Below are positions 1 through 34,100 of a stretch of 64,000 nt of DNA, one piece after another. The first letter of the stretch is position 1. The number at the start of each line of letters is the position of its first letter. Made by a program: the position numbers and the translations under genes. Origin of the DNA: Asterias amurensis (Eukaryota; Echinodermata; Asteroidea; Forcipulatida; Asteriidae). The notes under the pieces were generated by a model. It was not told where the DNA came from. It ran no database searches and saw nothing but the letters and a program-made list of their open reading frames with translations. Location of the stretch: positions 16,458,450 to 16,522,449 of the forward strand of contig NC_092648.1 of assembly GCF_032118995.1 (NCBI RefSeq), given 5' to 3'.

Positions 1-10542
<10,542 letters not shown>

Positions 10543-10772
10543 AGCCGTGCATATAAATGGTTTAAAGATCTTAAGACACCTAGATTAAAAGGGTGCGGGT
10601 TTTCGAAACAACTCTTTATAAACTTGACTCCGTTTTGATGAAGACTATAAGGTCATTTTAGTAATATCAATCAATCAAATGAATGATAAATTCGGCATAA
10701 AAGTTTGTAAGTTAACAATTGCCTATTTATTTTGAGATCAGAAAAAAAACATATTTTATTCTGATCACGGTT
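10543..10772 (+). other. RTK-A 3' UTR and end of duplicated block
   Basis: The variant poly(A) signal ATTAAA lies at 10584-10589, about 42 bases after the stop. RTK-B has canonical AATAAA at the equivalent place (28281-28286). Similarity to RTK-B continues past the stop and ends abruptly after CTGATCACGGTT at 10772 (28472 in B), which marks the downstream edge of the tandem duplication. Confidence 0.65.
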
Positions 10773-11460
10773 CTGAAAAAAAGTCACACCAGAGGATGTT
10801 TTTCTCTCAATGAGAAAATCCTATCTGCCTTTCAACATTTACAGATCAACAAATAAGTTTTGGTTTGATGTAGAAAAAAAGGCAATTTAATTGTTTCTGG
10901 TCTGGTCTTTTAACAAATAGTTGGTGTCTTAAAAAAAAAAAAAAAAGAGCTACACGCCATGCCATGTCTTGTGAATTTTCCTGCAAGTTTCAAGCCCTGA
11001 TTTGACAGTCAACATTTTCTGCACATCACATGCAGCGCCTGTACCCATCCCAGTGTACAATGTATAGCATTCGCTGCAACGCCTGTAACAAGTGTAGCAT
11101 TAAACAGCCGTTGATGGACATCCACCCACAACGCGTCACCAGCAAACCGAACAACTAACAATTAAACGAACACGTTCCCTTATGAGGCGCCAAGTGTAAA
11201 CTTATTATTTAACGCAACTATTTACAACTATCTCACCAAGTCGACTTACAGAAACTAAGAAGTTGACTTAACAGCCTGAACACGCGTTGAGATGTGTGTG
11301 TATCAAACCTTGTGCACCACTATGAGAGCACTCTATTTCCTAGTCTGTATGTTGCTTTTTAATTTTACGTTTGCGGGCTAAAACTAAATGTAATACTGTA
11401 ATGCCCCTTTAAATGATGTTTGACCAGGCAAAGATATAAAGTAGGTTCCAACGGTTACAA

Positions 11461-11921
11461 AATATTAGTATGATTAGCCCGTGCTTAGCCCGCTCAGGGG
11501 GGTTCCATTGTTTGTGATTAAGTTTACTTCATTATCATTATGTTTGACAACTTGGACCGAGCACCTCTGGGTCAAAAGATGTTTTGGAGTTTTCTTAACT
11601 TTACAAAATTATGATGTCACTTAACCATTGCTTCGTCCTTCGGATGGGACGTAAAGCCGTTGGTCCCATGTGTTATGTAACGCATATAAAAGAAACCCAG
11701 TGTACTTATCGAACAGAGAAGGATTTCGCCCCGGTGTTCCCGGTCCGATCGGCAGCAAAATTGCGCCACAGCACCTTGTAAAGCATTACATGGTGCTACC
11801 AGAATATTAGTATGATTAGCCCGTGCTTAGCCCGCTCATGGGGGTTCCATTGTTTGTGATTAAATTTACTTCATTATCATTATGTTTGACAACTTGGACC
11901 GAGCCACTCTGGGTCAAAAGA
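11461..11921 (+). repeat. 119-bp direct repeat pair (11461-11579 and 11803-11921)
   Basis: Both copies run from AATATTAGTATGATTAGCCC to GGGTCAAAAGA with the same length and only a few differences. A weaker third echo (TTGGATCGGGCACCACTAGG, GGTTCCAAACG, TTAGCCCGG) follows at about 12115-12205. The 220-bp segment between the copies is SINE-like. Confidence 0.7.
11605..11800 (+). mobile_element. SINE-like / retroposon fragment
   Basis: The segment contains CTTCGGATGGGACGTAAAGC, CGTTGGTCCCATGTG, AAGAAACCCAGTGTACTTAT, GGATTTCGCCCCGGTGTTCC and GGCAGCAAAATTGCGCCACA. From memory this order is a dispersed retroposon signature in many marine invertebrates. No poly(A) or target duplication was defined, and it sits between the two 119-bp direct repeats. 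Confidence 0.45.
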
Positions 11922-13465
11922 ATTACGGATTTATTTTAAACACATGTCATGACACGGCGAAACGCGCGAATATGAGGGTGGGTTTTCCCGTTATTTTCTC
12001 CAGGCTAAATTTTCACAGGTTTGTTATTTGATATAGAAATTTTGATACACGAAGTGTGGGCCTTGGGCAATACTGTTTACCGAAAGGGACCAATGGCTTT
12101 AAGTCATGTTTGACGCCTTGGATCGGGCACCACTAGGGCAGGAGATGTTAAGGAGGTTCCAAACGATACATAATTAGTATAAGCTTAGCCCGGTTTTGGG
12201 TTCCAGTATTTTCTTATTTTATGTAAATAACATTATATGCGCTAAAGGAACACGTTGCCTTGGATCGGACGAGTTGGTCTATAAAAAGCGTTTGTAACCG
12301 TTTGTTTCGAATACATAATGGTTGGAAAGATGTTGTAAAAGTAGAATAAAATGATCCACACAAATTTGCCTCGAAATTGCGTGGTTTTCCTTTTACTTTG
12401 CGAACTAACACGGTCGGCCATTTTTGGGAGTCATAAAAAACAGGATCTATGGAAAAGCTGTAAATAAAAACCATGTCGAAATATACCATTGCTATTCAAT
12501 AGAGACGTATTGTAGTCACTTTGGTTGGGGAGTGAGGAAACTAGTAAAACACACATAAATCACAGTGCTGGCTGGGACATAATTTTATGCACCTGGCAAA
12601 TCTATGCATGGATATTCTTTAGAAGGCTTTGTTTGTTTGAATAGATTCACATGGTTCGTTGAATATAAGGGGGTTGGTTGTGGCGACAACAACCTTTTTA
12701 TCCTTTTGACAACCATCATATAATATTGTAACTTCACGGCTCATGGTTGCACTTTGGTATTGTCACTTTTCAACTCGGCTCTACGTTCCATACATACATT
12801 TTGTTATAAATTTTTTTCATTGTGTAAAGGCTTATAGTTTGCTGAATAATATGACGAAAACAAACTTTTATCCGTTTGAACTGAATTCATGATTTATTGT
12901 CTCAATCTTCTCACGTAGTTATTACGTAGGGTCAAAACCTATTTTGCAAGTACATGTACACCATGTAGTGTAAGTTGGACGCAGTTTGCTAACAGCCATT
13001 AACCTTTTTTAAATAAAATCAGTAAATTAATAATTTTGCTTGTTACATAAAATAAAAGTGAAGAGGATGCCTGAATTGACTAATACAATCGGAGTTGGAC
13101 GAGGTGTAGACTTGATTCAAGTCTTAGATTGTGGTTATTCTTCTGCATCCCAGGCACAAAAAACGCCCCACATTATTAGCGATCACGCGGGCCCTAACTC
13201 GCAATCTCAATTTGCAACGTGTGCAGGCTGTGTATAAGTAAACTGTAAGTCGACTTGGTGAGATAAATTATGTCAGTAAGTGGACTTAACATTTGATCTA
13301 AGTCGACTTGATGAGATAAATTATGTTATTAAGTCAACTGATAGTTTTGAGTCATCATGACGTAACTCACACGGTTTCTTCTCCTAATAAATCGCTAACT
13401 ATGTGTGAAGTTTCAAGTTCATACGAGTTTGGGAAAGGCGCTTTTTTTAGCGGACAAGGGACGCT

Positions 13466-13609
13466 GAGAAGAAGAAGAAGAAGAAGAAGAAGAAGAAGAA
13501 GAAGAAGAAGAAGAAGAAGAAGAAGAAGAAGAAGAAGAAGAAGAAGAAGAAGAAGAAGAAGAAGAAGAAGAAGAAGAAGAAGAAGAAGAAGAAGAAGAAG
13601 AAGAAGAAG

Positions 13610-13639
<30 letters not shown>
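13466..13639 (+). repeat. (GAA)n microsatellite, about 58 units
   Basis: About 174 bases of uninterrupted GAA triplets. Reading frames through it give poly-Arg, poly-Lys or poly-Glu on one strand and poly-Leu, poly-Phe or poly-Ser on the other. These are artefacts of the repeat, not genes. Confidence 0.97.
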
Positions 13640-13641
<2 letters not shown>

Positions 13642-13676
13642 TGAAGAAAAAGAAGAAAAAAACGAACAAAAATAAG

Positions 13677-15380
13677 AGGTGTTCCGGGCTGTTGGCCCGA
13701 ACACCTAAAAAACGAGCAAAAATAAGAGGTGTTCGGGTTCAATACCCGAACACCTAAAAAGAAAAAAAAAACGAACAAAAATAAGAGGTGTTCCGGGCTG
13801 TTGGCCCGAACACCTAAAAAACGTGGATCAAAAATAATGATTTTTTGAAATAATAATTTGAATTTTTATTACTCAAGAATGGATGACGTCATCATGACCT
13901 AACTAACACATTGTTCCACTCCTAATGCATATCTAACTATGTGCGAAGTTTCAAGTTCATACGAGTTTGGGAAGTGTGCTTTTGTTCGAGGACAAGGGAC
14001 GAAGAGAAGAAGAAGATGAAAATCTGGATTGTTTTATTGATTTGTTTGTACTAAAGTTTTGTTTAATCCGGCAGTTTTTTTTAGCAAGACCACTCCTAAT
14101 TGCTTGGGCCTTATGCTTTAACCATTCTGTTTTCTTTGAATGTTTTGTATTGTAACATCCATGTCTGTGCATGGAGGTAGAAATAGATTAGTTTACGTAA
14201 CGTCCTTTCCTACTAGAGAAAGTTTAAAAGAGCTTATGTTATTCCAGAGATTTTTTTTCTTCAAAGTATTTAAATCAGAATAACTTGGACAGTTGTTTTA
14301 ACAAATAATCAAAACAATTGATGATTATGCTAAGTTCAAGAAGTAATAGATATTGTAATACTGACGTGAATTCCGTGGGCCCAAAACGCCCTTCACCCGG
14401 GGGGAGTGGTCGATCGATGTAACGTCTCGATTCTTCTCGGTGTTTAACCAAAACATGACCAATGTTCGTCATTTTGTACTGTTGTTTTCTCACATAATTA
14501 AAAGTCCCATGAATCACTGAAGTAGGTGGCCATCTCAGCGAAACTTCGTCTTCAATTACACATTGACCATTAAGCCATCAGAAGGGTAACATTTGAACAA
14601 TTTGACGCCGAAGATTGAGAGGAAATCGTTTTCGCAGTGTTCTGCATAAATACAGCTATATAGCTCTATGCATATCACGCTATGGCACAGAGTACAATAA
14701 ACTTGGCAGCATGCCACCAAATAAAGTATGCCTAATACACTACACGTGTACGCCACACGTGTTACGCACAACCAATGGGGAAATTTCGTAGTTCTTTATA
14801 CATGAAATTATGAATTTTCAAACTCGATTTTGAACCAGAAGACGAAATCAAAATGGGATCATGTCTGCGAGGCATTTACGGAGTTTTTAACGAACTTTCC
14901 GATGATGTGTCGATTGTAACAATCCATCATGTAGATCAAAAGTTATGATTTTTTGAAATAATAAACTTAGAAAATTCATAACTCCAGAATTGATGACGTC
15001 ATCGTGACGTAACTCACACGGTTTCTTCTCCTAATAAATTGCTAATTATGTGTGAAGTTTCAAGTTCATACGAGCTTGGAAAAGGCGCTTTTGTTAGCGG
15101 ACAAGGGACGGTCAGAAGAAGAAGAAGAAGTATGAAGAAAAAGAAAAAAAAACCGAACAAAAATAAGAGGTGTTCCGGGCTGTTGGCCCGAACACCTAAA
15201 AAGAAAAAAAACCGAACAAAAATAAGAGGTGTTCCGGGCTGTTGGCCCGAACACCTAAAAAGAAAAAAAAAACGAACAAAAATAAGAGGTGTTCCGGGCT
15301 GTAGGCCCGAACACCTAAAAAGAAAAAAAACTTAACCGAACAAAAATAAGAGGTGTTCCGGGCTGTTGGCCCGAACACCT
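13677..15380 (+). repeat. Seven stem-loop repeats (AGGTGTTC...GAACACCT)
   Basis: Near-identical 30-bp hairpins lie at 13677-13706, 13726-13755, 13786-13815, 15168-15197, 15227-15256, 15287-15316 and 15351-15380, spaced 50-64 bp within two clusters and separated by A-rich linkers of the type AAAAACGAACAAAAATAAG. The usual form pairs GGTGTTC and GGGC with GCCC and GAACACC around a TGTTG loop, leaving one C bulged. The second unit instead has GGTGTTCGGGT facing ACCCGAACACC, a perfect stem with altered inner base pairs. Confidence 0.85.
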
Positions 15381-17209
15381 AAAAAAGATGGCGGTATTTA
15401 TATGCCTATGAGTAATACCATACGCTGCCTAGTTTTAGGGAGTAAGACAGATCTGCTGTCAGATTGTCGTTGTTAGCAACCATTGACGCTCCAGTAGCAT
15501 AAAATGACAATCTTCTTACCCCAGTTTTTGCTTTCGTTGGCTTTATCCGACAGAATATTTTGATTCCTTGCTTAACCATCGTCTTAAGATATATTCCATT
15601 CTATATCTTAGGATGAATTCATGCCCACTTCAGTCACAACAAGATCAAAAGAGCCGTTTGTAGTTACATTTGTACACCGAGAGACGTTTACTGTGCACAC
15701 CAAATCAATCACCAAAAATGCCAGGGAAATTTCAGTAATGAATGTGCGCCCTCTATCGGCAAAATTTCGTTCAATTCATTAGAGTATAATTTATTTAATT
15801 CTGGACTACTATTTTATTACTAAAATAACTTTTGATTTTTAAACGAAATATAAAATGACAAGGATCTAAGTGGTGGGTAGCCGTGTTATTTTAGGTAGTT
15901 GCAAAAAGCAATCATGTAGAACTCGTATAGCAACAACTAGACTACTTCAAAGGTTAAACAAAATGTAACCGGTTATAAAATAAACCACTTGAATAAACCA
16001 ATTAAAACTGAATGCTATGGGGGAACTCTCTTATAGAAAAACTCAATTAAACAAGATCGAATAGGGTAAAGACACGATGAGAAGCAAATAAACAGGAACA
16101 GTGACTCAAAGTGGTAGGTTTATCATTAAACAAAAAGTACCAAATAACTTATAAATCAATGACCAAAAGCCAACAACAAAAATTAGCCGAAATTAATGGA
16201 TGGACTTGGGGAGCTTAATATTCTTGAAGCCAAGTGAAACCTAAACAATCGCTAGAAAAGCACTTTTCTACACACATCGAGAATCGAAACAGTCCAGGTT
16301 TCACCTCGTGATTATATTTTGTCATCTAGTACGGTTCTAATATTTGTATTCATGTGAAAGTAAAACCTATAGCTCTTCGTTCAAAGTTGGAATGAGAAGA
16401 AAGGAAAACATTTCATGTTGGTTCCCGCCCCCATATTTTCCTTATCAAAGGTAGGCATAATATATCAACTTCTTTCAAGAAGTTTCGATTTTTAAATAAA
16501 AACACAAAATTTTCTTCTAAAGGGGGGGGGGGCCTACAATGAAAAGAGATAGCTACAGCTTTGTGATTGTTTCCAAAGTAAACATTCGTTTCAATCAAAA
16601 GGGCCTTTCACTTTCTTCACACGAATTTTCCCAGTAAATAATGAAAGTCTTTGCCAACTATCCATATCGAATTAACCATTCATTATGTGTAATTACCTGT
16701 GTTTATGTTGGAGGTCTCATAGTAGGCCTTCGTGTATAAGAGAAGGAACAGCAATATCTCAAAAGACAGAACCTGCTATTGCGAGTAGGAAGAAGCACAT
16801 AACATGAGATGATGTTGGGATAAATCGAAAGGATTTCTGGTGAGTAAATAATAATTTTGACATCCAGTTTTAACGACCACAACATATAACAGCAGTTGAT
16901 GAAACACTTTGTTTAACTTGAATACGAACGAGCTTTAACCATTGAGAGAACATGAAGGTGGCGATTTGTTGATTCAATTGATATTGTTTTTGAGGCCACA
17001 TCACACAGGGTTTTTACAGGTAACTTGGAGGCAACCAACTGCATGCTGATTGAACACTTCGTGCAGCACGAAGGCATATTTACCAGATAAACTTTCCAAC
17101 AACATCCCGAGTGGAACTATGTGTAAATTGCCTCGTGAGATTATGAAATAGCCCCATTCTTAAAAATTGTTTCGGTTTTTTTTTATATAGAAAAATCGAC
17201 CGCAGCCAT

Positions 17210-20200
17210 ATGCAATGCTCGATGATTGAGATGACGTCACTGTTGGTTATTATCGCGATGGGACAAGCCTTTTTCAGGTTGACTCATGCAGGCAAGTTAC
17301 GTTATAAAGTGATTAGGCTCTACTTGAGTTCAAAGGAAAATTGTGTTTCAGTTATGACTATATAATTATAAGCAACAAAGGTGGTTGGATTCATTTACAT
17401 TTCTAATAATTTAAACTTTTAGGACAGTTGTAAACAACAACAACAACAACAACTATCAAGTAACATTGGCTCCTCCCACCCAATGGGCAAGTATTTCATA
17501 CTTTTATGTCGTCAATATTGTTGAGGGCATTAGGGCCTATTTGTATGTGGAGGGTTTCTTGAATAATGTTTACCCTCACAGCTGTTTGCTGCCGTTAAAT
17601 GTAATATTAATAAATTATAGTTCAGAATTTGAATTGCAGGTGACTTTGCGATATTCGTGGATATAAAAAATGTAACAATATCGGTAGGAAGCATGGATAA
17701 GGAACTAGCCGACGCAGTGACGATACCTCTCGAAGGGCTGATAAACCCTGTGGATGTTGACTATGACCCCGTGGAAAAAATGGTGTACTGGGATGACCTC
17801 AGAACTAAGCCTGCGGCAACTATTTCCCGGGCACGTCTTGACGGCAGCCACCAAGCCATTGTTGTAAATGGACTTGATTGTGAGTTATATATAAGTTTCA
17901 AAATAACTTCAACAGGCACTTGAGACCTTTGGTAATTTATTGTCAAAGACCTGTCTTCTCACTTGCGACTAGGGTACATAAATTATGCATAAAAAGTTTG
18001 AACTCACTATTGGTCGTCGAAGTTGCGAGAGACTAATGGAAGAAAAAAAACCTTGTCGCACAAGTTGTTTGCTTTCAGATGCTTGAATTCGAGACCTCAG
18101 TTGAGGTCTCGAAACCAATTCAAAATATATTTTACTGACAAATTACTTCTTTCTCAAAAATTACGTTACTTCATCAGAGGGAGTCGTTTCTCACAATGTT
18201 TTTCAGCTCTCCATTGCTCGTTACCAAGTAAGTTGTTACGCTAGCAATTATTTTGAGTAAGAACCAACAGTGTCAATGCCTTTAAGAAGGAAGAAACATG
18301 ATTTCATGTAAGCTGGGGGTAGTGATTTTTTTACTGCATGGTTGGTACTTGCATTTTGATTTTGGAGTTGACGAAAACAAACAGTGGTACTGAAATCATT
18401 TTTTTTTAGATCCGGACAGGCTGACCTTGGACATTGAAGGCAGGATGATTTACTGGACAGAAATTGAATTGGGGTACATTGCGAGAGCTCCGATGAATGG
18501 TACAGGAACCGTTGAGATTATTGTGGAGGATCTTGTCAATCCCAGAGAAATCCTATTTGATCAGGTCTTAAAGTAAGTAAATCCATAAGTGGGGAATTAT
18601 ACAGATAGCACATTTTACTCTCAATTTTGTTTGCATCCATAATAATTGTACACGCCCTGAAGGCCATTCTTTAGAGTTTGCGTCCAATGGGAAACATTAG
18701 TTTGTAGTATAGCACCAAGGCCAAGAAAAGGGCACCCAAAGTCCAATGACATTCGTGTAATTCCATAAATGCTTTATTATCCCCCATACTGTATTGAACC
18801 GTACCAGTTTGCCTTTTTAATAAACAATTAATGATTTCATCCAGTAAAAACAACCTGATTATTACCAAATCAGCGAACCGAGCTGAGAACAAGTTGCAAC
18901 AGATAGAACCACAAACCGAGAGGACGTTGCCATGATACATCACGACACACAGACACTTCAATTTCAAATTTAGTGCAATATACATTTGAGTGCAAAAGAT
19001 TTGGGTTGTGATGAGACATACTCGTAATTGAATACCTTTAAAGATTCTCTGTCTCTCACGCATCATGTTTTATTTTATTTTTAACTTAACTATTTCAGGA
19101 ATATCTACTGGACCTGTGTATTAAAAACGAATGGTACAATCGGAAAATCAGACTCAAACGGTAGAAATAAGACGATCATCGTTGTGGGGAATTTACTTCA
19201 GCCAAATGGGTTAGCTATTGATTATGAAGGTAAGATCTTACTAAAGAACACAACTAGTTTACCCAATATGAAAACAAGTGACACGAAGCACGAATACTGT
19301 TTGTATCAAGGCGAAAAGTAATTCCTCTGCCAATCGTTGGGCAACAAATACTGTAGAAAAGGTGTCTTTAATAGTGACCATTAGCAGAAAGCTACTTACA
19401 TCAGGGTAAAAATGACTGTATGGACCACTACTGACTTACCAGGGGTGATCATTAGCACGCGATGCATGCTATGTGTATCACAAGTGAGAAATTAATCTGT
19501 CTTAAATTGCATGCCACAGTCGGATAAAATGCCTGAGAAACAAAATAATGATTAATTCTTAAGGGGGAATGCCACCACTATACAATTGCAACACATTTTT
19601 ATCAATACACTCACAGACTGCATTTGTCCAAGTTTGGCTACAGCGTGGGAGAAAATTATCTTTGTACATTTTTTTTATATTGACCATCTGATCGTCAGAT
19701 GACCATTGTCCACCATACATGAGCATATTGAGAAGGTGCAAATTTGTAAAATATAACTACAATGTTCACTACAGATGAAGCGGTCATTGATCGCAGATCA
19801 TGCGGTGTGGGATAAGGGTTTAGTTTGAACAAGTTTGGTTTACATCTGTTGAATAACTTCGATTTTCCTTTTTTTTACCCGAAGAAAGAAACCTACTTTG
19901 CACCGCTAATTTACCATTAAAGCAATTATTCATTCTCTAAAACGTTTATAGAAGAACAACTGTACTGGATTGATGATAACTTTCCTCCTAAAATCGAAAA
20001 GAGTGACCTATCCGGCAACGAAAGAGCTCTGGTGACAGAATTGCAACTATTTCTTAAACCTTTTGATCTGGAGATATACGGGGACCAACTGGTCTGGACC
20101 GACCGAAACCATTACAAGATATTGCACGTGCGGAAGAGCGGCAGAGGGGGTTCCTCACCGTATGAGTCTGAAACAAAGAACGCAATGACCGGAGGATTAC

Positions 20201-23200
20201 GCATTCAAACAGGTTTGCTGAGTTCTACACCCTTATTTATTATAAAATAATAGGAGAAATTGGGTGGGTAGATGATAATACAATTTTGTGGCGAATAAAG
20301 CAAAACTGACAAGCCTGAGGCTTGCCAACATAAGCTATTATACAAATATTGACTGCTTCGAGTGTCACGGCTAAAACTATGACTCCCGAGGTGATCCCGG
20401 AGCGTTCTATTTGCCCGAGGCGAAGCCGAGGGAAAGTAGAACGCTACGGGGATCACCGAGGTAGTCATAGTTTTAACCATTGCACGAGTAAAAGCGGTAA
20501 ATAGTTGTTTTATAACACCCCAAACATTTCTAAATACTGTACTATTATTATTAAGTCACAGACCTGAATGCTACAATACACGGACGACGCGAATACAGAT
20601 TGCAAAAACTTGTACTGTGCTGCATGTAGTGTCGTGCAATCCTAAATGGTTACAGACTATTAATTTATCAACCTCGTACACGCAACGGACGTCTGGGTAT
20701 TGCACGCCTATCAAGTCATTTCGGGTTTAAGTTGAAGGGTTTTAAACAGACGCATGGAACAAGTGATGGAATTAAGTCACCATGATAAAATGCCTATAGT
20801 TTATATTTTATGGGATTTGAAGCATTGGCATGGTGAAGTATCAATGTTTGCGATAGCACCATCTGTCTACCTTCCATGTATATTTTGTTCCATAGAGAAC
20901 TGTCTTGTACGGAAGCGTATATAGGACATACCGAAAAAAGAATCAGGCTCCACTATTTCGCCCGGGCGGATTACTATTTCGCCCGGGCGGATTACTATTT
21001 CGCCCGGGCGGATTACTATTTCGCCCGGGCGGTTTACTTTTATGCCCGGGCGGATTACTAATTCGCACGGGCAGATTACTATTTCGCCCGGGCGGATTAC
21101 TAATTCGCCAGGGCTGTTTACTATTTCGCCCGGGCGGATTACTATTTCGCCCGGGCGGTTTACTTTTATGCCCGGGCGGATTACTAATTCGCCCTGGCGG
21201 ATTACTATTTCGCCCGGGCGGATTACGAGGCCGCATGTTTACACAGGGCTACATGTATCATTTCACTTTTACCTTAACAAACATCACCAGATAAAAGTTC
21301 TCTTTAACCCTTTAACCCCTTCCAGCCTCCTTTTTCTCCTTCAACCCCCCCCCCAACACTCTTTCTTCCGTGTAAGTAATCCGCCCGGGCGAAATAGTAA
21401 TCCGCCCGGGCGAAATAGTAATCCGCCCGGGCGAAATAGTAATCCGCCCGGGCGAAATAGTAATCCGCCCGGGCGAAATAGTAAACCGCCCGGGCGAAAT
21501 AGAAATCCGCCCGGGCGAAATAATAATCCGCCCGGGTGAAACAGTAATCCGCCCGGGCGAAATAGTAATCCGCCCGGGCGAAATAGTGGAGCCCGATTTT
21601 TTTTTCGGTATGTCCTATATACGCTTCCATAGTCTTGCTATATTCTATAACCGCGGAGAACATCGGCATTTGCGGAAGTCTTCTCAGTTCTGAAAAGAAC
21701 TTTCCTGCTTTTTAACTAACGCCTACTTATACCTATAGGCGGAAGGCAGAAAATCGGCTGGGACAACTATTCTAGCTTAAAGGTGTCTCAACGTTTCAAC
21801 TAGCTTGCTCTAGCCATCGTCAGGAGACTGATTGTTTGAATTACTGATATCTCTCGTTCCATGTACAGAAGTCAATTATTGTGATAATTTCACTAAGTGT
21901 TCAAATGGATCCACCTGCATCGATGTACCGAACGGCTTGAGGTGGCAGTGTCAACCTGGATTCGAAGGAGCTACCTGCTCAATTAAGTCTATCAGTAAGT
22001 TCCACCCATTAGCCTTATGGCAAACAAGGAACTCCATTTGATTATGTCAACGATTTCCAAAGAAAAAGCTCCCTATTATTGTACGAAATTCATTCCAATC
22101 CAACTTTTTTCCAACAACCAAGTGCCGTGTAAAACAAATCCCTGCAGCCGATTTCACGAAACGCTAAGATTAATCCTAACTCGAGTTAGGATGAGTAACT
22201 CGTCCTAACTTAGGATAGGTTCAATGCGTCCTACGTATTTGGATACGAAACTGAACCCGTCCTAAGTCCTAAGATTAATCCTAAGTTAGGAAGAGTTTGG
22301 TGAAATCGACGGCTGGTCCTTTTATTATTCAGCTTATGGGCCTTTTTCGAAACGACGGCTTCAGCTTTGGCCCCGCGAGTGATTTGACATTTGCTTGTGC
22401 TTTGCGTACTACGGGCTTCAGGCGAGAGAACAGAGCCTGATCCAAAGCCAAAGCCGCGGTTTCGAAAGAGTGAATATAATATGTGAAGTTTTGGTGTGTT
22501 TTTGTTTCATTTAGGCTAGGCCTATATCAGAAGATAATTTGACGTACAGGTTCAGTTGTCACAGAGAAACATTTTCAAGGGGGATACAGCATTTATGTTG
22601 GTGTCACCACTCCCGTTCAGTAATCTATAAATGAGGGAATAGATTATTGCTCATTGCGGTCATCAGTTATGCAGCAGAGCTAGTTTACGCTTTAAAATAG
22701 TGTTTTGTATTTTTCCAAGATATGATAGCTTGGTTGGTGCCGTTGTTGGTGATGGTCTTCGGCGCAGTCGCAGCCTCTCTAACCATTTGTGTCATCAAAC
22801 GGAAGCACAGACGAGACGGAACTCAAATGGCACAAGAAATGCGCCACGACATCGTCGAAAATGAAGGGTGAAGTTTATACATTATGTACCTTATGCAAAC
22901 CAAATCTCATTTGGTCGCACCAACCTTTTAAAAATAATTATGTCCACTCATTGTCTCCTTTCTCATACAAAACGAGTAATATCGATACCACAAACATAAG
23001 GGACGTTGCCTTCGGATTAGGCGCTTAAGGCCATGAAACCGATTGTTTTGAAATAAATGGTTGGAAAGTATTTTGAAAGTGCCAACTGTGAGGTTTTTGT
23101 AGAATCGATTATTTTTTTCCTCCTTAAATAAAAGTGGATCAAATCATCGCAGCGCCCACCAGGGGAATTACGTGGACCGTAAAAAGAAATTTGCTAAATT

Positions 23201-26200
23201 ATGTAACTTTGTCGTTTTTTTTTTATTCTTCGTTATTGTGTGTGTGGTTTTCCTTTTTACTTCGTGAACTTCGCGAACCGCCATTTTTAGATCCGATTAT
23301 TTATTTTTCTCCACAAATAAAAAATGGTTTAGATCATCGCTGTAGCCAATATCAAACAGCAGTCGTATAGGCCTATTCCATAGACTTACTTTTCTGTATC
23401 TTTACTTCAGATCCCAACTGGTGCTCGAAACCCTCGAATTTCCCGAAGTGCCTGACGTAGCAAACTTCAATGGTAAGTAACCAGTTTGTCAATATCAGCT
23501 TAAAGGCACTGGGTTCGAAAAACTTAAGGCTAGTTCTATTAGTTAGGACGAGTAACTCGTCCTAACTCGAGATTGGATTAGTCTCAACTCTTAATCCACC
23601 CCTGAACACCTTTGGTAGTTGTCAAAGACCAGTACTATCACTAGGTGTGTTTCAACATATGCATAAAACAACAAACCTGTGAAAATATGGACTCAAAAGG
23701 TCATCGAACTTGCAAGAAAATAATGAAAGAAAAACACCCTTGTTGCACAAATTAATTGTTGTGCTTGTAGATGCCAAAAAAGGCTTCGGAGGCCTTTTTT
23801 TCAGATTCAAATATTTGAGTGAGAAATTACCTCTTTCTCGAAAACTACGTTACTTCAGAGGGTGCCGTTTACTCACACTGTTTTATACTACCAGCAGTTC
23901 TCCGATGGTCGTTACCAAGTAACATTTTTATGCGAACAACTATTTTGAGTGATTGCCAATAGAATCCAGTGCCGTAGAGTCATTTTGTTTAATGACTGCG
24001 TCCAAACAATTTAACACGGAGGGAAATTTGATATTGTGCTCCACACCCTTTAAAAAAGTGGTTATCCGTTGCCTCCAGGATTGAAGCCGATGGCGGGACA
24101 AAATATGGTCTGGTTTAATACACAGTACAATACTTGAACTTCATGACAAAGGTGGTCAAAAACATGGAGGGAGGGACATTTTGATATTGTGTCCCCCTCC
24201 CCTCAAAAGGTCGGGAGACTAATATCCCCCTGTCCCTTCCCTGATCGACGCCCCTGACTGAGAACGACCATTGTCATTCTAAACCTCCAGATATCTCCAA
24301 AGATGGAACATCTTTCCACGCAGAAACGAGTCTCTCGTTCCCGAGGCATCTCATTGTGATAACGGGTGAGCTGGGTGTAGGAAACTTCGGACGGGTGTTG
24401 TTGGCCACAGCAATAGGAATCGAAGAAAGCAAGAAACATACCATCGTGGCCGTTAAAACAATCAAAGGTGAAAGTATAGATAATGACCACTGTTTGGTTT
24501 GGTATGCAAACACATTTTACCCAAACTAAATAGTGTCATAGATAGTGTGTCCACCAGCAAAATGGCTGATTATCATCCACACCCAATTTCAGTAAAGGTA
24601 AACTTGTGATAGTTTACTTAAAAAAAGAAAAAAAGTTGTAACTATTTCACGCAAAAATAAACACAGCAGTCACAGCAGCTCAGCTAAAGAGATCTGTTTT
24701 CCATCACCCGTTGCATTTACGATGCAGACGACTAGGTTACTGGGGACCAATCATGACCATTACCGACAGTGAACGCCGAAGCCACGGCGCACACCCTGGT
24801 GATGAAAAATGCTTGGGGACTGAAAACGGTGATCATAAAAAAAACTATGAAAAAAATGTGTCACTATGGTTTGTTTAATTATTTTTTTTTTCTTTTTTTT
24901 TTACAAAAGAGGGTGCTGACATTCAGGCCAAGAGTGACCTTCTTCAAGAGTTGGACTTAATGAGAGCAGTTGGTTCACATCCAAACATCGTCCGATTGCT
25001 GGGATGTTGCGTAAGAGAAGGTAAAACATATGTTTCTCAGTTCGTGCAAGCCATTGCTGTACGGTATTATAGTTGTAGTAAAGAGTGATCTGAAATCGAG
25101 GCTCTTAATGTTACAATAGATTAACCATTTATGGTATAATAAATGTCACAGTTACTTTGTGTCAAACTGATAAAAATGAGTAACCATCAATTAACCATTC
25201 ATTCACTACCAATAAGAAAGCTTATAGTCAGTCGGTCGGATCAATAACACAACAGTGTCCCGACCCGAGGGTGGTGGGGCAACAGTTCATGAAATACTCT
25301 TCACTGATAATAACAACAACAACAACAACAACAGCAACAATCAGTGAGAGTCGGTGCAGAAAACCATAGTCATAGCCATTCGCCTAAAGAATCTGTCATC
25401 TGTGTTTCATTCCTTTCAATCCCACCGCTGCCACCATTTAAAAGTATACATTATTATATTATATTCAAACTATTCATACTATCGTCCAATTTTATGTGTT
25501 AGAGTATCAACAAAATATCCATATAGCAGTGCCAAGCCAAGTACATTCCTGACCTTTCATCCTCTATCATCTCGAATTGTGAAGTTTCGATGTTCAACTG
25601 TTTGACTCCATAGATCCCATTTATATCATAATGGAGTACCTTGCTAAAGGTAATCTGAAGAGCTACCTCAACGCGTGCAAAACTCAAGACCCAGTCTATG
25701 CAAACTCCACTGGCTACAGCAAGAGACTCTCACAGACCTTGGTCAGGTGTGCCAGAGATGTGGCGAGTGGAATGAGTTTCTTGTCTTCGAAAATGGTAAA
25801 AACTCAAAACCAGTTTCACCATGTTTGAAAAAAGAGAGTTTGTGGGACCTTATATATTGTGAATGCGTTCTGTACAGTTACGTTTGACTGTGGTGATAAA
25901 CAGAATTTAGAGCAGCCACACCTGCAGTGGCTGTGGGGCGTGGTCGTTGTCTTCGTGTTGTATGTTCCGTTGTGGTGGTCATGATGTTATTGAATAAAAT
26001 GACCATCCTTTGTTCTTATTTGGATGTTTGATAGATTTACGTTTATGCATTCAATGCTTAATTGAGGTAAGTAGAAATAATAGCAATCTTCAATTTCCCG
26101 CGCTTACTATTTTTGTTTGCCCTCTCAAGTGCATCCACCGTGATCTGGCTGCTCGTAATGTGTTGATCAGTGACGACATGGAATGCAAGGTGTCTGATTT

Positions 26201-28239
26201 CGGCCTCTCTCGGGATATCACACATGAACGGATCTACATCCGAAAATCTAAGGTGAGACCATCTTTGCTCTATTAGGCTTGTTGAGATGCGGACACCATA
26301 GGAGTGCACAGTTTGGTTTGGGTGTATCAGACAAATCAACCCAAACCTACTTAGTGTCCTGGCATTGTTTCCACCATATATTCCTCATAATGGCTTAGGG
26401 TGATACCTCTGTACCAACACCCCTTTCATTATCAAGCTTGAACTTTCAGGCCCTTGGCAAATTTCTCAGCCCCAGTTGGCTGATGGAATGATCACTCGAA
26501 AGGCAATATATTTTACGCAAGTACCACGGCGGCTTCAGCAAGGTAGCAAACAACAACTTCGTAGACATTACAAGCATGGATGTTTTTGTAACAAGAATAT
26601 GAACGTGCACACACATCCGAGAGCAATGAACGGATTGTTGTACTATACAAAAGGGCGGTGCAAACCACACAATTTCAAGACATATTCGTGTGGATCATTA
26701 TGTTCTACTTTTAAAGCATCTTTCCAGCCGTATACGCCCTCCTGATTTCAAAAAAACATACAAACTTTTTATAGCCCAAAACGCCGATTCAAGGCATAGC
26801 GTCCCAATAACGAAGGGAGCAGTAGGCATATAAATAACATGATAATGTTTTCACCGAAACTATTTGAAATCATTAATTTGCAGAGACCTCTACCCATGCG
26901 CTGGATGGCGCTGGAATCTTTAGTCAGTGACGTGTACACATCGGAAAGTGACGTATGGTCTTTTGGGGTTCTTCTGTGGGAGTTGGTCACGCTTGGTAAG
27001 AGTCATGTTTATTAATTGGTAATCGATTTTGTTTTTGTTTTTAATAGGGTTGGATAATCTTTGCAGTCACGCCTTAGGTTTGTAGAGTGAGAACACTGAC
27101 AACCTTTATAAAGGCCCAATCGACCACTGATTTCTTAACCTAAATTTGGTTCCGTTTACAGGACACCGGCCGTACCCGCTCATGTCCGTTAAGACCATGG
27201 TAAGCAAACTACAGAATGGCTACCGTATGCCGAGTCCACCAAGCTGCAATGAACAGATGTAAGTTTATTTTATGACACATATAAATGATTTGTAATTATC
27301 AAAAATGAAGAAAAAAACACCTACTATTAAGTTGATAACAGTTTTATAAATAGACCTACCAAAATAGTGCTGAGCCCGAATTTGTGTACGGCTATGCGTC
27401 ATCACCGCGTCATTTATAGGGAGTTTTCGTTTACGACGACGGATGGTTCTGCGACGGCAATGATGACATTTGCATGCGTCGGCTTTGAGGACGGTCGTCC
27501 CTCAATTTCTACGACAGTACTTGGGATGAATCTTCGTTGTGCTGAAAACGACAACGGTTTGGCTGAAAAACCGTCGCAGAACCACCCGTCGCAAAAACTC
27601 CCTATTATGACGTAGCAACAACCTTCGTAGCCGTAGCCGACAATTCCTATCTGGCATGCAGTGGCCATGGCATTGAAGACCCATCAGGCACCAACAAATT
27701 TAAAACAAAAATATTACATTCATATTCGCAATGTGTTTTGTATGATATAGGTACTCAATGATGTTGAGCTGCTGGCTCCAGAATCCAGCTGAGCGGCCAT
27801 CTTTCCAAAGTCTTTATGAGCAGTTGGACGAAATATTAACCGAGGAAATGGTATGAGCTATGGGATTGGTAATCGCACGTTAACGAACCCTAGAACACAT
27901 GTCACGGAAAAGGGGGGAGGGGGTGGTTACCTCAGTGTTTCTGGTTTACAGAAATTATGTTTGAATGTTTCCCCAGGCTTGCGAGCTATCTTACAGTGAT
28001 TAAATTCACTCAGAAAAAGCACAATGGCGCTGACTTGTGTAAAAGTGTATTAACATGTTTCATTTTGGAAAGCTGTATATCGAGCACATCGGATCGGGAA
28101 TTAAAGTTTAGTTCAATTTTTTTACTCGGAGATTAATAAGTGTATTTTTCTCTGACAGGATTACCTACTGTTGGATAAACTGGATGACGACAATTATGAT
28201 GACACACAGCTGATGGAAGAATTCGATGAGATATTATAA
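17210..28239 (+). CDS. Receptor tyrosine kinase B: complete YWTD propeller-EGF-TM-kinase (~731 aa)
   Basis: Exons: 17210-17291, 17640-17879, 18410-18572, 19099-19229, 19952-20212, 21869-21994, 22720-22867, 23411-23472, 24291-24467, 24910-25020, 25614-25795, 26130-26252, 26884-26995, 27162-27258, 27751-27850, 28159-28239. Total 2196 bp, frame closed. Residues 1-27 are a signal peptide (an in-frame Met8 at 17231 could also start it). Residues ~28-292 hold LDL-receptor class B blades (MVYWDD, MIYWTE, NIYWTC, QLYWIDD, LVWTD), consistent with one six-bladed LRP-type propeller. An EGF module spans ~293-334 and the membrane span ~336-358. The kinase has GxGxFG at 433-438, Lys460, Glu477, catalytic Asp566 in HRDLAARN and DFG at 584-586. 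The tail [19 protein letters not shown] is acidic with possible phosphotyrosines. The first intron would be GC-AG (CAG|GCAAGT). One EGF cysteine is Trp (codon 21943-21945). It should be an active membrane kinase; its ligand is unknown. Confidence 0.88.
17914..18280 (+). repeat. Abundant ~400-bp TIR repeat, copy in an RTK-B intron
   Basis: It runs from GGCACTTGAGACC to AGTGTCAATGCC followed by TTTAAG. It shows the family landmarks TTGTCAAAGACCTGTCTTCT, CACAAGTTGT, and GAGACCTCAGTTGAGGTCTC (a short internal palindrome), then CGTTACCAAGTAAG. The corresponding intron of RTK-A lies upstream of the window, so its age relative to the duplication cannot be judged. Confidence 0.75.
20369..20477. mobile_element. 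Palindromic hairpin element, 109 bp, in RTK-B
   Basis: The left arm CTAAAACTATGACTCCCGAG...GATCCCGGAGCGTTCTA faces a right arm TAGAACGCTACGGGGATCAC...GTCATAGTTTTA around a short GC-rich centre (GAGGCGAAGCCGAG). Nearly the whole element folds on itself. It is absent from the corresponding RTK-A intron, where surrounding sequence also differs, so no precise empty site can be read. Confidence 0.75.
20908..21631. mobile_element. Foldback element with tandem-repeat arms, 724 bp, in RTK-B
   Basis: The termini are inverted: GGAAGCGTATATAGGACATA near 20911 and its complement TATGTCCTATATACGCTTCC ending about 21629. The left arm then has 13 copies of a 21-bp unit (CGCCCGGGCGGATTACTATT, about 20957-21226). 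The right arm has 10 copies of its complement (about 21379-21592). A ~150-bp unique centre contains CATGTATCATTTCACTTTTA and a C run. The element is flanked by GTCTTG on both sides (20902-20907, 21632-21637). RTK-A has a single GTCTTG in an otherwise continuous sequence (about 3791-3796), an exact empty site. No transposase coding; the apparent FARADYY reading frames are repeat artefacts. Confidence 0.85.
22145..22315. mobile_element. TAGGAC-palindrome MITE, copy in RTK-B
   Basis: It begins CAGCCGATTTCACGAAACGC and ends GGTGAAATCGACGGCTG, with an interior of repeated CCTAACT/AGTTAGG palindromes. RTK-A reads straight through (AAATCCCTG joined to GTCCTTTG near 4339), so the insertion is younger than the duplication. 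The flanks suggest at most a 3-bp (CTG) duplication. Confidence 0.75.
22338..22470. mobile_element. Foldback MITE, RTK-B counterpart of 4362-4512
   Basis: Same family and intron position as the RTK-A copy: TTTTTCGAAACGACGGCTTC at the left and GCCAAAGCCGCGGTTTCGAA at the right, but shorter and more decayed. Shared position shows a single insertion before the gene duplication. Confidence 0.7.
23505..23973 (+). repeat. Abundant ~400-bp TIR repeat, RTK-B counterpart of 5541-6009
   Basis: Almost identical to the RTK-A copy from GGCACTGGG to CCAGTGCC, in the same intron between the juxtamembrane and first kinase exons. This shared insertion is useful for estimating neutral divergence between the two genes. 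Confidence 0.75.
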
Positions 28240-28472
28240 AGCTGTGCATATAAATGGTTTCAAGATTTTAAGGCACCTAGAATAAAAGGGTGTGGGTTTC
28301 AGAAAAAACTCTTTATAAACTTGACTCCATTTTGATGAAGACTATCAAGTCATTTCAGCAATATCAATCAATCAAATGAATGATAAATTCGGCATAAAAG
28401 TTTATTGTAAGTTAACAATTGCCTATTTATTTTGAGATCAGAAAAAAAAATCATTTTATCCTGATCACGGTT
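28240..28472 (+). other. RTK-B 3' UTR and end of duplicated block
   Basis: Canonical AATAAA lies at 28281-28286, about 42 bases past the stop. Similarity to the RTK-A flank stops at 28472 after CTGATCACGGTT. Confidence 0.65.
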
Positions 28473-31196: not shown

Positions 31197-34100
31197 ATGC
31201 GGATCAGTGACACTCACACTGTGAGTGCGAGTTACAGTATTTGGTTTTGTGTCGTCGTCCTTGCTTCCGTGTCTGTGACAGCAGGTACATGTAAAAACAA
31301 CTTTACTGTTTGCCTATTTAACAGGGAATTATGTTGATACGAAATGACAACTCTTTCGTCTTCTTGAGTAATGAGAGGATTATAACTTGGCATTACAAAT
31401 GGGCTCTCGATTTCATAATATCCTAAGTTGGGTTCCTATTCCTTTTGAATTCGTTCCTTTTCAACGTTCCAACTTTTAATTTGGAGTTTACCCTGGGCCT
31501 TAAAATGTTGAATGATTGGTGTAGCTTAAAAGGCAGTGGACACTATTGGTAATTACTCAAAATAATTATTAGCATAAAACCTTACTTGGTAACGAGTAAT
31601 TGGGAGAGGTTGGTAGTTACTAGTATAAAACATTGTGAAACGGCGAGTAGTTTTCGAAAAAGAAGTAATTTTCCACGAATTTGATTTCGAGACCTCAAGT
31701 TTAAAATTTGAGGTCTCGAAATCAAGCATCTGAAAGCATACAACTGCGTGTGACAAGGGTGTTTTTTCTTTCATAGTTATCTCGCAACTCCGACGACCAA
31801 TCAAGCTCAAATGTTCACAGGTTGGTTATTTTTTTGCATATATATATGTTGAGTGGATCAAGTCAGAAGACTGGTCTTTGACATTTACCAATAGTGTCCA
31901 CTGGCTTTAATTAATTTAAAACAATAACAATGACCTGTAGACCTACTATTAATAATTAATTTAATTGTTCCCATATGCTGTTTTTAATTGAAAAAGAAAC
32001 GGGAGGAACTTCACCTTTCATCATCACTTCATTTGTTTTTAATAGACAGTGAGGCAAAACATTGCCCACCTGTCACCCGATACCAGGCTGGCATCTGCAT
32101 AAATGAGTGCACATCGGACAACGAATGCTTCTCTTCCAAGAAATGTTGTGGAAATGGCTGCGGAACGGTCTGCCAATATCCTGTGAAGTTTGAAGGTACC
32201 TAAAGTTCTTGACTTCTAAGATTGAAATTTTAATCTAATAAATCTATGGAAGCGTTAGTGTATGAACACAATAATTATCTTGTACGTGCATTGTACTAAA
32301 AAAAGTATCATGTACAAACATGTACATGATAGTAATTGTGTAAACAGATCAATCTTACACGATAACTATCACTCAGGATGGTAGATAGTACGTACACAAT
32401 AAGTCGGGAGTTGTCATGTACATACATCAGATAGTTGTTTTAATGTACGTACATGATAGATAAATATCATGTACGTACACGACTACCCATCTGTTTATTT
32501 CATTATTTTGCAAAACGATATGTAGAAAAAAACTTGAGGTTGAGAGATCCTGACAGGATGTTACTGTTAGTAACATTGTGAAAATTGTCTCATGTGTTAC
32601 CATGGTTCCATGGTGTTAGTCTAGCTGTTACTAACATAATTTCCCTAGTTTCAGTATTGACTCTATAAAAACGAATGACCATAAAAACTTACTTAATACA
32701 TGCAGTAAGAAGCACTGCAGCTGTTGATGCAGTAAAGAACATTTTGAGAAACAATGTTTTTCAAAGGAATGAAGTCTTAGAGAGACATTTTCCTCAAGTA
32801 AAATAGACGTTGTACAAACTAACAACTTGTTTTTTGATTCTCCAGTACCCCATGCAGGTGTGTGTCCAGTGGTCAATGATACCATTGGGGCTTTATGTAT
32901 TGACCCTTCTCCATGTGACGTTGATCAAGAGTGTCCAGAGTTTAAAAAGTGTTGCTCCAATGGTTGCAGCAAGCTCTGCACAACCCCAGAGAAGACTGAT
33001 GGTAGGCTTTTAACATTGTTTTTTCCTATTTACAGGATCTCAACCTAGGACACGGTTAGTATTTCGGTACACAAAATACCAGTAATGATAATGATGAATA
33101 TTTATTTTGTGCAATATCCACCTAAATAAGGTGCTAAAAGTGCATGAAAAAGAACGATAGTAGAAACAGACAAGGAAGAAGAAACAGTAAAGACGAAGGG
33201 AAGCGAAAGAAAAGATTTCTGAAGAGCTGTTTGAAACAAGTTAAACTTCAATCTGTCCTTCAATGTGTCCACGATGCCACTATCCCAAATATGTGAGGGT
33301 AAAAGGTCTGTAACTGACTCCAAACAATAAATATGATGGACAAATGAAGAGACGATCACACAGGAGTTTTGTGGATGTGAGACATGACGCCAGTGTAATT
33401 CATATGACCTCTGACTCATAATCAGCACGGCATACTGTATGCACTATGGACAAATCTAAATACGAAAGACTCCTGGGCCCAGTTTCATAGAGCCTGTATT
33501 AAGCACAAAAACCTGCTAAGCACAGCAAAATCTTGCTTAGCAAAAACAGGCTATCAGAATCACACTATTGCACTTTGTTAATTCAGATTTATTGATGACT
33601 GGATTTAAAATTATTTTCTTGGTTGATTTACTCCTGATGAGAGAGCTATTATCTGTTGAAACTAATCCCTACTTTTTACTCATCTTTTAGAAAATAAGGT
33701 CGGCCTTTGCAAGGGGGATGTACCAGTTGGTGTAGGTTCAGAGTGGAACCCAATGAGCAACTGCTCCTCATCGTGCTCTAGCGACAAACACTGCACCGGG
33801 GATGAGAAGTGTTGCTGGGTCGAAGAATGTGGGGGTTATGCCTGCTCAGAACCAGCACATGGTAAGGGGTCATTTCAGACCAGTCTTATGATTTGCCAAA
33901 AATTGTTTCCTTTTATGAAAGATGTGACTGAACATGTACAATACAGGCGTGTGAGACTTCCTCTTTTCAGCTGATTTCCACTTTTTTCTTCACTTTCTGT
34001 GTACAAAAGTATAGCAATGTTATCTTTTTCTCTTTTGTTCTTGCCGGTTTTCTCCTTCCTGTTCTTCTATAGATAGTTACTCACATGCTTCGGAATAACA

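What the first reader, a model, noticed from the sequence alone, without database searches (positions are those of the whole stretch)
17210..28239. Receptor tyrosine kinase with a single LRP-type YWTD propeller plus EGF as its whole ectodomain
From the sequence: signal peptide, five or six YWTD-type blades, one EGF module directly after the propeller as in LRP5/6, one membrane span, and a kinase with all catalytic residues. Established: ROS1/Sevenless kinases carry YWTD propellers but together with many FN3 domains, and LRP5/6 have no kinase. Inference: a propeller-EGF-TM-kinase receptor of ~731 residues is a distinct architecture, possibly an echinoderm-specific class, and might couple Wnt/Dkk-like or other propeller ligands to tyrosine phosphorylation.
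Basis: partly seen in the sequence, partly recalled or inferred. Interest (0 to 1): 0.78.

Follow-up and report, generated by a model that had tools for sequence, protein, structure and literature searches.

The report
Starfish chimeric propeller receptor tyrosine kinases
Two neighbouring genes, probably from a starfish, each encode a cell-surface receptor that joins an LRP-like beta-propeller and one EGF module to a growth-factor-receptor type kinase, and the same genome holds relatives of each half as separate genes, so it looks like a receptor made by exon shuffling.

Summary
Window 17210-28239 (+) reads as one 16-exon gene for 731 residues: signal peptide, one YWTD propeller, one EGF module, one membrane span, intact tyrosine kinase. 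A second complete copy, 699/731 identical, lies just upstream. The kinase is not ROS-type: at 100% support it joins five kinases of the same genome, two of which were read upstream and carry Ig exons; ROS1-like and FGFR-like kinases are separate genes. The ectodomain is 41% identical to two propeller-EGF genes without a kinase in 20 kb and agrees with them at all six intron positions on the sides scored. Best reading: a receptor made by exon shuffling, joined at the phase-1 intron between EGF and membrane-span exons. The EGF is Notch-like, and copy 2 has lost one EGF cysteine. Since duplication the kinase was constrained, the ectodomain not detectably. Wnt/Dkk binding is not supported: three of five acidic LRP6-pocket positions are lost. 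Ligand unknown; no transcript evidence. Eight paper searches on receptor kinases showed no such receptor; other animal genomes could not be searched.

The parts
17210..17291 (+). Gene 2 exon 1: start codon and signal peptide; GC-AG donor
17640..17879 (+). Gene 2 exon 2: propeller start, first YWTD-type motif
18410..18572 (+). Gene 2 exon 3: second YWTD-type motif
19099..19229 (+). Gene 2 exon 4: third YWTD-type motif
19952..20212 (+). Gene 2 exon 5: fourth and fifth motifs and propeller end
21869..21994 (+). Gene 2 exon 6: EGF module (Cys4 replaced by Trp318)
21995..22719 (+). Phase-1 intron 6, inferred fusion point between the propeller-EGF half and the Ig-RTK-type half; no AATAAA or ATTAAA
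22720..22867 (+). Gene 2 exon 7: membrane span and juxtamembrane
23411..23472 (+). Gene 2 exon 8: juxtamembrane
24291..24467 (+). Gene 2 exon 9: kinase, glycine loop and VAVK lysine
24910..25020 (+). Gene 2 exon 10: kinase, alpha-C
25614..25795 (+). Gene 2 exon 11: kinase hinge and short insert
26130..26252 (+). Gene 2 exon 12: kinase HRD, DFG and activation loop (Tyr597)
26884..26995 (+). Gene 2 exon 13: kinase
27162..27258 (+). Gene 2 exon 14: kinase
27751..27850 (+). Gene 2 exon 15: kinase end
28159..28239 (+). Gene 2 exon 16: C-terminal tail (Tyr707, Tyr718) and stop
28281..28286 (+). AATAAA, possible polyadenylation signal just after the stop
1..10542 (+). Gene 1, tandem copy; exons 1-2 and the first bases of exon 3 lie upstream of the window (start at window position -1257); complete 731-residue frame, intact EGF Cys4; ATTAAA at 10584

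Best explanation
Shown by sequence: two tandem, intact genes encode a type I receptor tyrosine kinase whose ectodomain is one YWTD propeller plus one EGF module. The kinase belongs to a clade of kinases of this genome in which the two members read upstream have Ig exons; the ectodomain belongs to a family of single-propeller-EGF genes of the same genome, two of which were read and have no kinase in 20 kb. Inferred: the gene arose by exon shuffling or fusion at the phase-1 intron between the EGF and membrane-span exons. The membrane-span exon looks like the Ig-RTK one (by eye, 21-24 cytoplasmic residues after the span, against 2 in gene B). It then duplicated in tandem. Inferred mechanism: the propeller binds a ligand, probably one also used by the kinase-less propeller-EGF proteins; ligand or clustering brings receptors together, the kinase trans-phosphorylates the activation loop (Tyr597), and FGFR-like outputs (Ras-MAPK and, through Tyr707 in a DYLLL tail context, perhaps PLC-gamma) follow. 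So it would plug an LRP-like input into an FGFR-like output.
For: Gene model and phases; domains; tandem copy with the same exon plan. Kinase: 53-64% identical to five clade members, 47% to human FGFR1, 42% to human ROS1; clade support 100; scored exon boundaries agree with genes C and D, which carry Ig exons upstream. Ectodomain: 41% identical to genes A and B, all six intron positions and phases in agreement on the sides scored; after the two copies, the best matches to the ectodomain are 7 loci of this family, none with a kinase match nearby, and directly for A and B. No AATAAA or ATTAAA in intron 6 of either copy; AATAAA (gene 2) or ATTAAA (gene 1) begins 42 bases past the stop in each. 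Kinase constrained since duplication: 5 nonsynonymous, 7 synonymous changes, one-sided P 0.0066.
Against: No transcript shows exons 6 and 7 joined. The propeller pair branches beside the five others (75% for the five excluding it), so the direction of the swap rests on FGFR-type receptors being Ig receptors; the position of the whole clade next to FGFR has only 60% support (Newick), and VEGFR, PDGFR, RET and TIE were not in the tree. Only two of the five clade members were checked for Ig exons; in gene C one of two candidate exons gave no Ig match. Splice sites of A-D were picked from several candidates with the alignment in view; the first junction was scored on the acceptor side only, the sixth in A on the donor side only. 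Searches scored 107 of 339 and 117 of 503 candidates, so a divergent kinase beside the five unfetched family loci is not excluded. Ligand, dimerisation and downstream steps are untested; the FGFR PLC-gamma site is recalled and the tail is not a strict match.
Confidence: 0.8

Rival explanations
1. It is a shortened ROS1/Sevenless receptor that lost its FN3 domains.
For: ROS is the only one of the 20 RTK subfamilies in Table 1 of PMC9953206 with YWTD propellers (table seen in passages); the kinase is 42% identical to human ROS1.
Against: A separate ROS1-like kinase of this genome (C14, 67% to human ROS1) pairs with human ROS1 at 100%, while this kinase sits in another 100% clade. No FN3 in the plus-strand frames of 10543-24290. 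The ectodomain has an EGF and matches the propeller-EGF family.
Confidence: 0.03
2. Two separate genes: a secreted propeller-EGF protein and a kinase gene starting at the membrane-span exon.
For: No RNA evidence; genes A and B of the same ectodomain family have no kinase within 20 kb.
Against: Junction phases fit; no AATAAA or ATTAAA in intron 6 of either copy; a kinase gene would have to begin at the membrane-span exon, unusual for a receptor kinase (inference; no search for another first exon was made); both copies keep the same plan.
Confidence: 0.1
3. The architecture is right, but gene 2 is a decaying copy and only gene 1 makes a functional receptor.
For: EGF Cys4 lost in gene 2; ectodomain 26 nonsynonymous and 5 synonymous changes, dN 0.034 about equal to intron divergence 0.034.
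Against: All frames and splice sites intact; kinase constrained (P 0.0066), though the pair test cannot say in which copy.
Confidence: 0.25

Closest known systems
ROS1 / Sevenless
   Same: Receptor tyrosine kinase with YWTD propellers
   Different: Three propellers and eight or nine FN3 domains (passages of PMC9953206 and PMC11743138), different kinase clade, no EGF
FGF receptors
   Same: Best human kinase match per domain among the 60 of 2418 PDB matches shown; the clade branches next to the FGFR pair, 60% support
   Different: Ig ectodomain; the FGFR-like kinase of this genome (C8, 70% to human FGFR1) is a separate gene whose match runs through the site of the intron before HRD
ApLRRTK of Aplysia
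   Same: FGFR-type kinase whose Ig ectodomain is replaced by another module (passages of PMC4200351)
   Different: Ectodomain is LRR, not propeller-EGF
LRP2, LRP4, LRP6
   Same: YWTD propeller with an EGF-type module behind it
   Different: No kinase; several propellers; different EGF spacing; three of five acidic LRP6 E1 pocket positions not shared
Kinase-less propeller-EGF genes of the same genome (A, B here)
   Same: Propeller plus EGF, 41% identity, same introns
   Different: Sushi exons downstream (A), or three EGFs, a span and a short tail (B), in place of a kinase

Membership tests
ROS1/Sevenless | FN3 domains alternating with YWTD propellers | tested here: not met
   one propeller, no FN3 in the model or in plus-strand frames of 10543-24290
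ROS1/Sevenless | Kinase groups with ROS1 | tested here: not met
FGFR | Ig-domain ectodomain | tested here: not met
FGFR | Kinase groups within FGFR | tested here: not met
   outside the human/own-genome FGFR pair; next to it with 60% support; small tree without VEGFR, RET, PDGFR, TIE
LRP5/6 | Four propeller-EGF units plus LDLa, no kinase | tested here: not met
   definition from passages of PMC10089208
Ig-RTK kinase clade of this genome | Kinase phylogeny and intron positions | tested here: met
Ig-RTK kinase clade of this genome | Ig ectodomain | tested here: not met
   Ig exons shown for 2 of 5 other members
Propeller-EGF family of this genome | Propeller+EGF homology and intron positions and phases | tested here: met
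Receptor tyrosine kinase (general) | Ligand-activated tyrosine kinase activity | not testable with these tools
   catalytic residues present by sequence only

The most novel reading that the evidence does not exclude
A young, lineage-restricted receptor class born by swapping the Ig ectodomain of an FGFR-like receptor for a propeller-EGF ectodomain. It would share its ligands with kinase-less relatives that act as decoys or scavengers, and its ectodomain would now be diversifying between tandem copies.
Probability: 0.35. Interest if true: 0.68.

Novelty: new variant of a known kind. Interest (0 to 1): 0.52.

Why it matters
Receptor tyrosine kinases are thought to have diversified by shuffling ectodomains, but it is uncommon to find relatives of both source families beside the product (judgement, not searched). 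Here a kinase clade, an ectodomain family and two copies of the chimera lie in one genome with matching intron phases, so the origin of a new receptor input can be dated and tested. It also offers a kinase read-out with which to look for ligands of the kinase-less propeller-EGF proteins.

Tried and rejected
ROS-type origin: rejected by tree and missing FN3. The FN3 scan has limits: it read raw frames at E 0.05, recovered the known EGF only below its cut-off and the propeller in 2 of 3 frames, so a domain split over exons could be missed; the 40 kb upstream of the window were not scanned for FN3. Sub-threshold Pfam matches in 10543-17209 (CDC45, Mpp10, Nop14, SRP-alpha) fall in one stretch of about 350 bases and look like charged low-complexity sequence; not followed. 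Positive selection on the ectodomain: not shown, 26 nonsynonymous of 31 changes against 78% expected, P 0.29. Exon 5 is the most divergent stretch at both kinds of site (dN 0.077, dS 0.074), so uneven gene conversion is as likely as selection. Rows dropped: 14 loci of this genome were loaded; two (C13) gave no plus-strand match and were left out of the tree, which used 12, chosen by hand. The tree alignment is anchored on the query, with gaps for missed exons (154-287 of 287 columns). Support values printed after re-rooting are shifted; those given here are from the Newick string.

Papers: of ten searches, eight concerned receptor kinases; two searches returned nothing, one search listed 15 of 505 and one search listed 15 of 20. 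The single hit (PMC9643190, coagulation proteins; one section and passages seen) names Ldl_recept_b and PKinase_Tyr in one figure legend beside two Oikopleura proteins; the figure is not held, so whether both domains lie in one protein could not be seen. Gla-domain receptor kinases of tunicates (recalled) would explain it. The 2006 sea urchin RTK paper is not held; the 2006 sea urchin kinome paper was not looked up.

Full report
Where it is. The window lies at C1:16458450-16522449 of a 491,506,623-base genome in 23 contigs. That size is close to the 491.53 Mb given for the seastar Asterias amurensis (start of abstract of PMC10625585 in a search listing). The species, and that it is a starfish, are inferences from size and content; no name was given.

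The gene. Exon by exon, a consistent reading of 17210-28239 is 16 exons with matching phases at all 15 junctions and an open frame of 731 codons. The product has a signal peptide, a propeller (Ldl_recept_b 76 bits), an EGF module, a span at about 342-360 and a kinase (303 bits). The best solved relatives are LRP2, LRP4 and LRP6 for the ectodomain and FGFR1-4 for the kinase; a tandem EGFR construct ranks first by sum only, with 156 bits per domain against 284 for FGFR1 (best 60 of 2418 shown). AATAAA begins 42 bases past the stop of gene 2 and ATTAAA 42 bases past the stop of gene 1; neither occurs in intron 6 of either copy (other introns not examined). No FN3 was seen in the plus-strand frames of 10543-24290.

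The second copy. In 124 kb around it, tblastn finds two copies. Gene 1 runs from -1257 to 10542 in window numbering with the same 16 exons and all splice dinucleotides kept. The proteins differ at 32 positions, so 699 of 731 are identical (difference list; the printed 700 counts the stop). Introns differ at 3.4% of aligned sites, 246 of 7162. The kinase shows 5 nonsynonymous and 7 synonymous changes (P 0.0066 for constraint), the ectodomain 26 and 5, which is what no constraint would give; the contrast has Fisher P 0.0099. Gene 1 keeps all six EGF cysteines and passes Pfam's EGF cut-off (29.5 bits); gene 2 has Trp318 in place of Cys4 (18.2 bits). Both copies have one further cysteine, Cys168, in the propeller.

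The kinase half. Searching the genome with it finds related kinase exons on C19, C22 and C4, among others. In a 17-sequence tree (3 human, 14 from this genome) the two copies and five of these form a 100% clade; human FGFR1 and the FGFR-like kinase on C8 (70% identical) form a pair with 100% support, as do human ROS1 and the ROS1-like kinase on C14 (67%). The clade lies next to the FGFR pair with 60% support. Gene C (C22:4.97M) and gene D (C19:8.80M) share the kinase exon boundaries; every side that was scored agreed, but the acceptor of exon K5 in C and the acceptors before K7 were not scored. Both have Ig exons before the membrane span: one of two candidate exons tested in C, two of two tested in D; a third candidate in D was not submitted to Pfam. 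The intron just before HRD is absent in the FGFR-like gene, where one match runs through it.

The ectodomain half. After the two copies themselves, the best genomic matches are seven loci on C22 (5.73, 5.79, 5.84, 6.38M) and C1 (10.69, 10.70, 10.74M), E 4.5e-18 to 6.7e-13; ordinary LRP-like exons follow from 1e-9 (107 of 339 candidates scored). Weaker matches to the same first exon on C12 (10.22M) and C17 (4.11M) may be further members and were not read. Two loci were read. Gene A (C22:5.79M) has a propeller and one EGF, with Sushi exons downstream; gene B (C1:10.70M) has a propeller, three EGFs, a span and a short tail with NPQY and PPPRY. That the Sushi exons belong to gene A was not shown by splicing. 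No kinase exon was found in the 20 kb read for either. Both agree with the receptor's ectodomain at all six intron positions and phases (1, 1, 2, 1, 1, 1) on the sides scored; the first was scored at the acceptor only and the sixth in A at the donor only. Six LRP-like matches without a stop (C13:9796872, 11233842, 11240060, 11249144, 11290529; C22:1678401) run through the fourth of these positions to query residues 245-262, so the pattern is not general to YWTD genes.

The join. The membrane-span exon is phase 1 in and phase 2 out in the receptor and in genes B, C and D, so either parent would fit. Its length after the span resembles the Ig-type genes (by eye), which puts the junction in intron 6 (21995-22719).

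What it would bind. Of 12 LRP6 E1 positions named in passages of PMC7585440 and PMC10089208, five are identical (D98, E115, R141, N185, T240); E51, D52, E73, L95, G158 and A201 differ and V70 is Leu or Ile (the alignment is gapped near E73). Several of the kept ones belong to the general YWTD repeat. So there is no specific support for sclerostin-, Dkk- or Wnt-type ligands, and they are not excluded.

Known or new. A published table of 20 RTK subfamilies gives YWTD propellers only to ROS. Shuffling of RTK ectodomains is established (passages of PMC8662651), and an FGFR-type kinase with a foreign ectodomain is known in Aplysia (passages of PMC4200351). This is therefore a new variant of a known kind; its strength is that relatives of both parts are in the same genome. 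One figure legend (PMC9643190) leaves open a tunicate protein with both domain names; see Tried and rejected.

Noticed in passing
window 20952-21226 and 21375-21587: Intron 5 of gene 2 holds two 21-base tandem arrays whose consensus units are reverse complements of each other (13 and 10 copies); intron 5 of gene 1 is about 880 bases shorter.
   Followed up: partly
window 31988-32203: An open frame with a WAP four-disulfide domain (PF00095, 41.5 bits), 3.7 kb downstream of gene 2.
   Followed up: no
G000 C19:2.48-13.83M, C22:1.51-1.63M and 4.97M, C4:23.30M: Many related receptor-type kinase exons, apparently an expansion of Ig-type receptor tyrosine kinases, dense at C19:8.5-9.0M; ectodomains were checked in two.
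   Followed up: partly
L045-L046 (C1:10703000-10722999): Gene B: a propeller-3xEGF single-span receptor with NPQY, PPPRY and tyrosine motifs in a short tail.
   Followed up: partly
window exon 4, residue 168 in both copies: A cysteine in the propeller with no evident partner (IYWTCV), aligned to a gap in genes A and B and LRP6.
   Followed up: no
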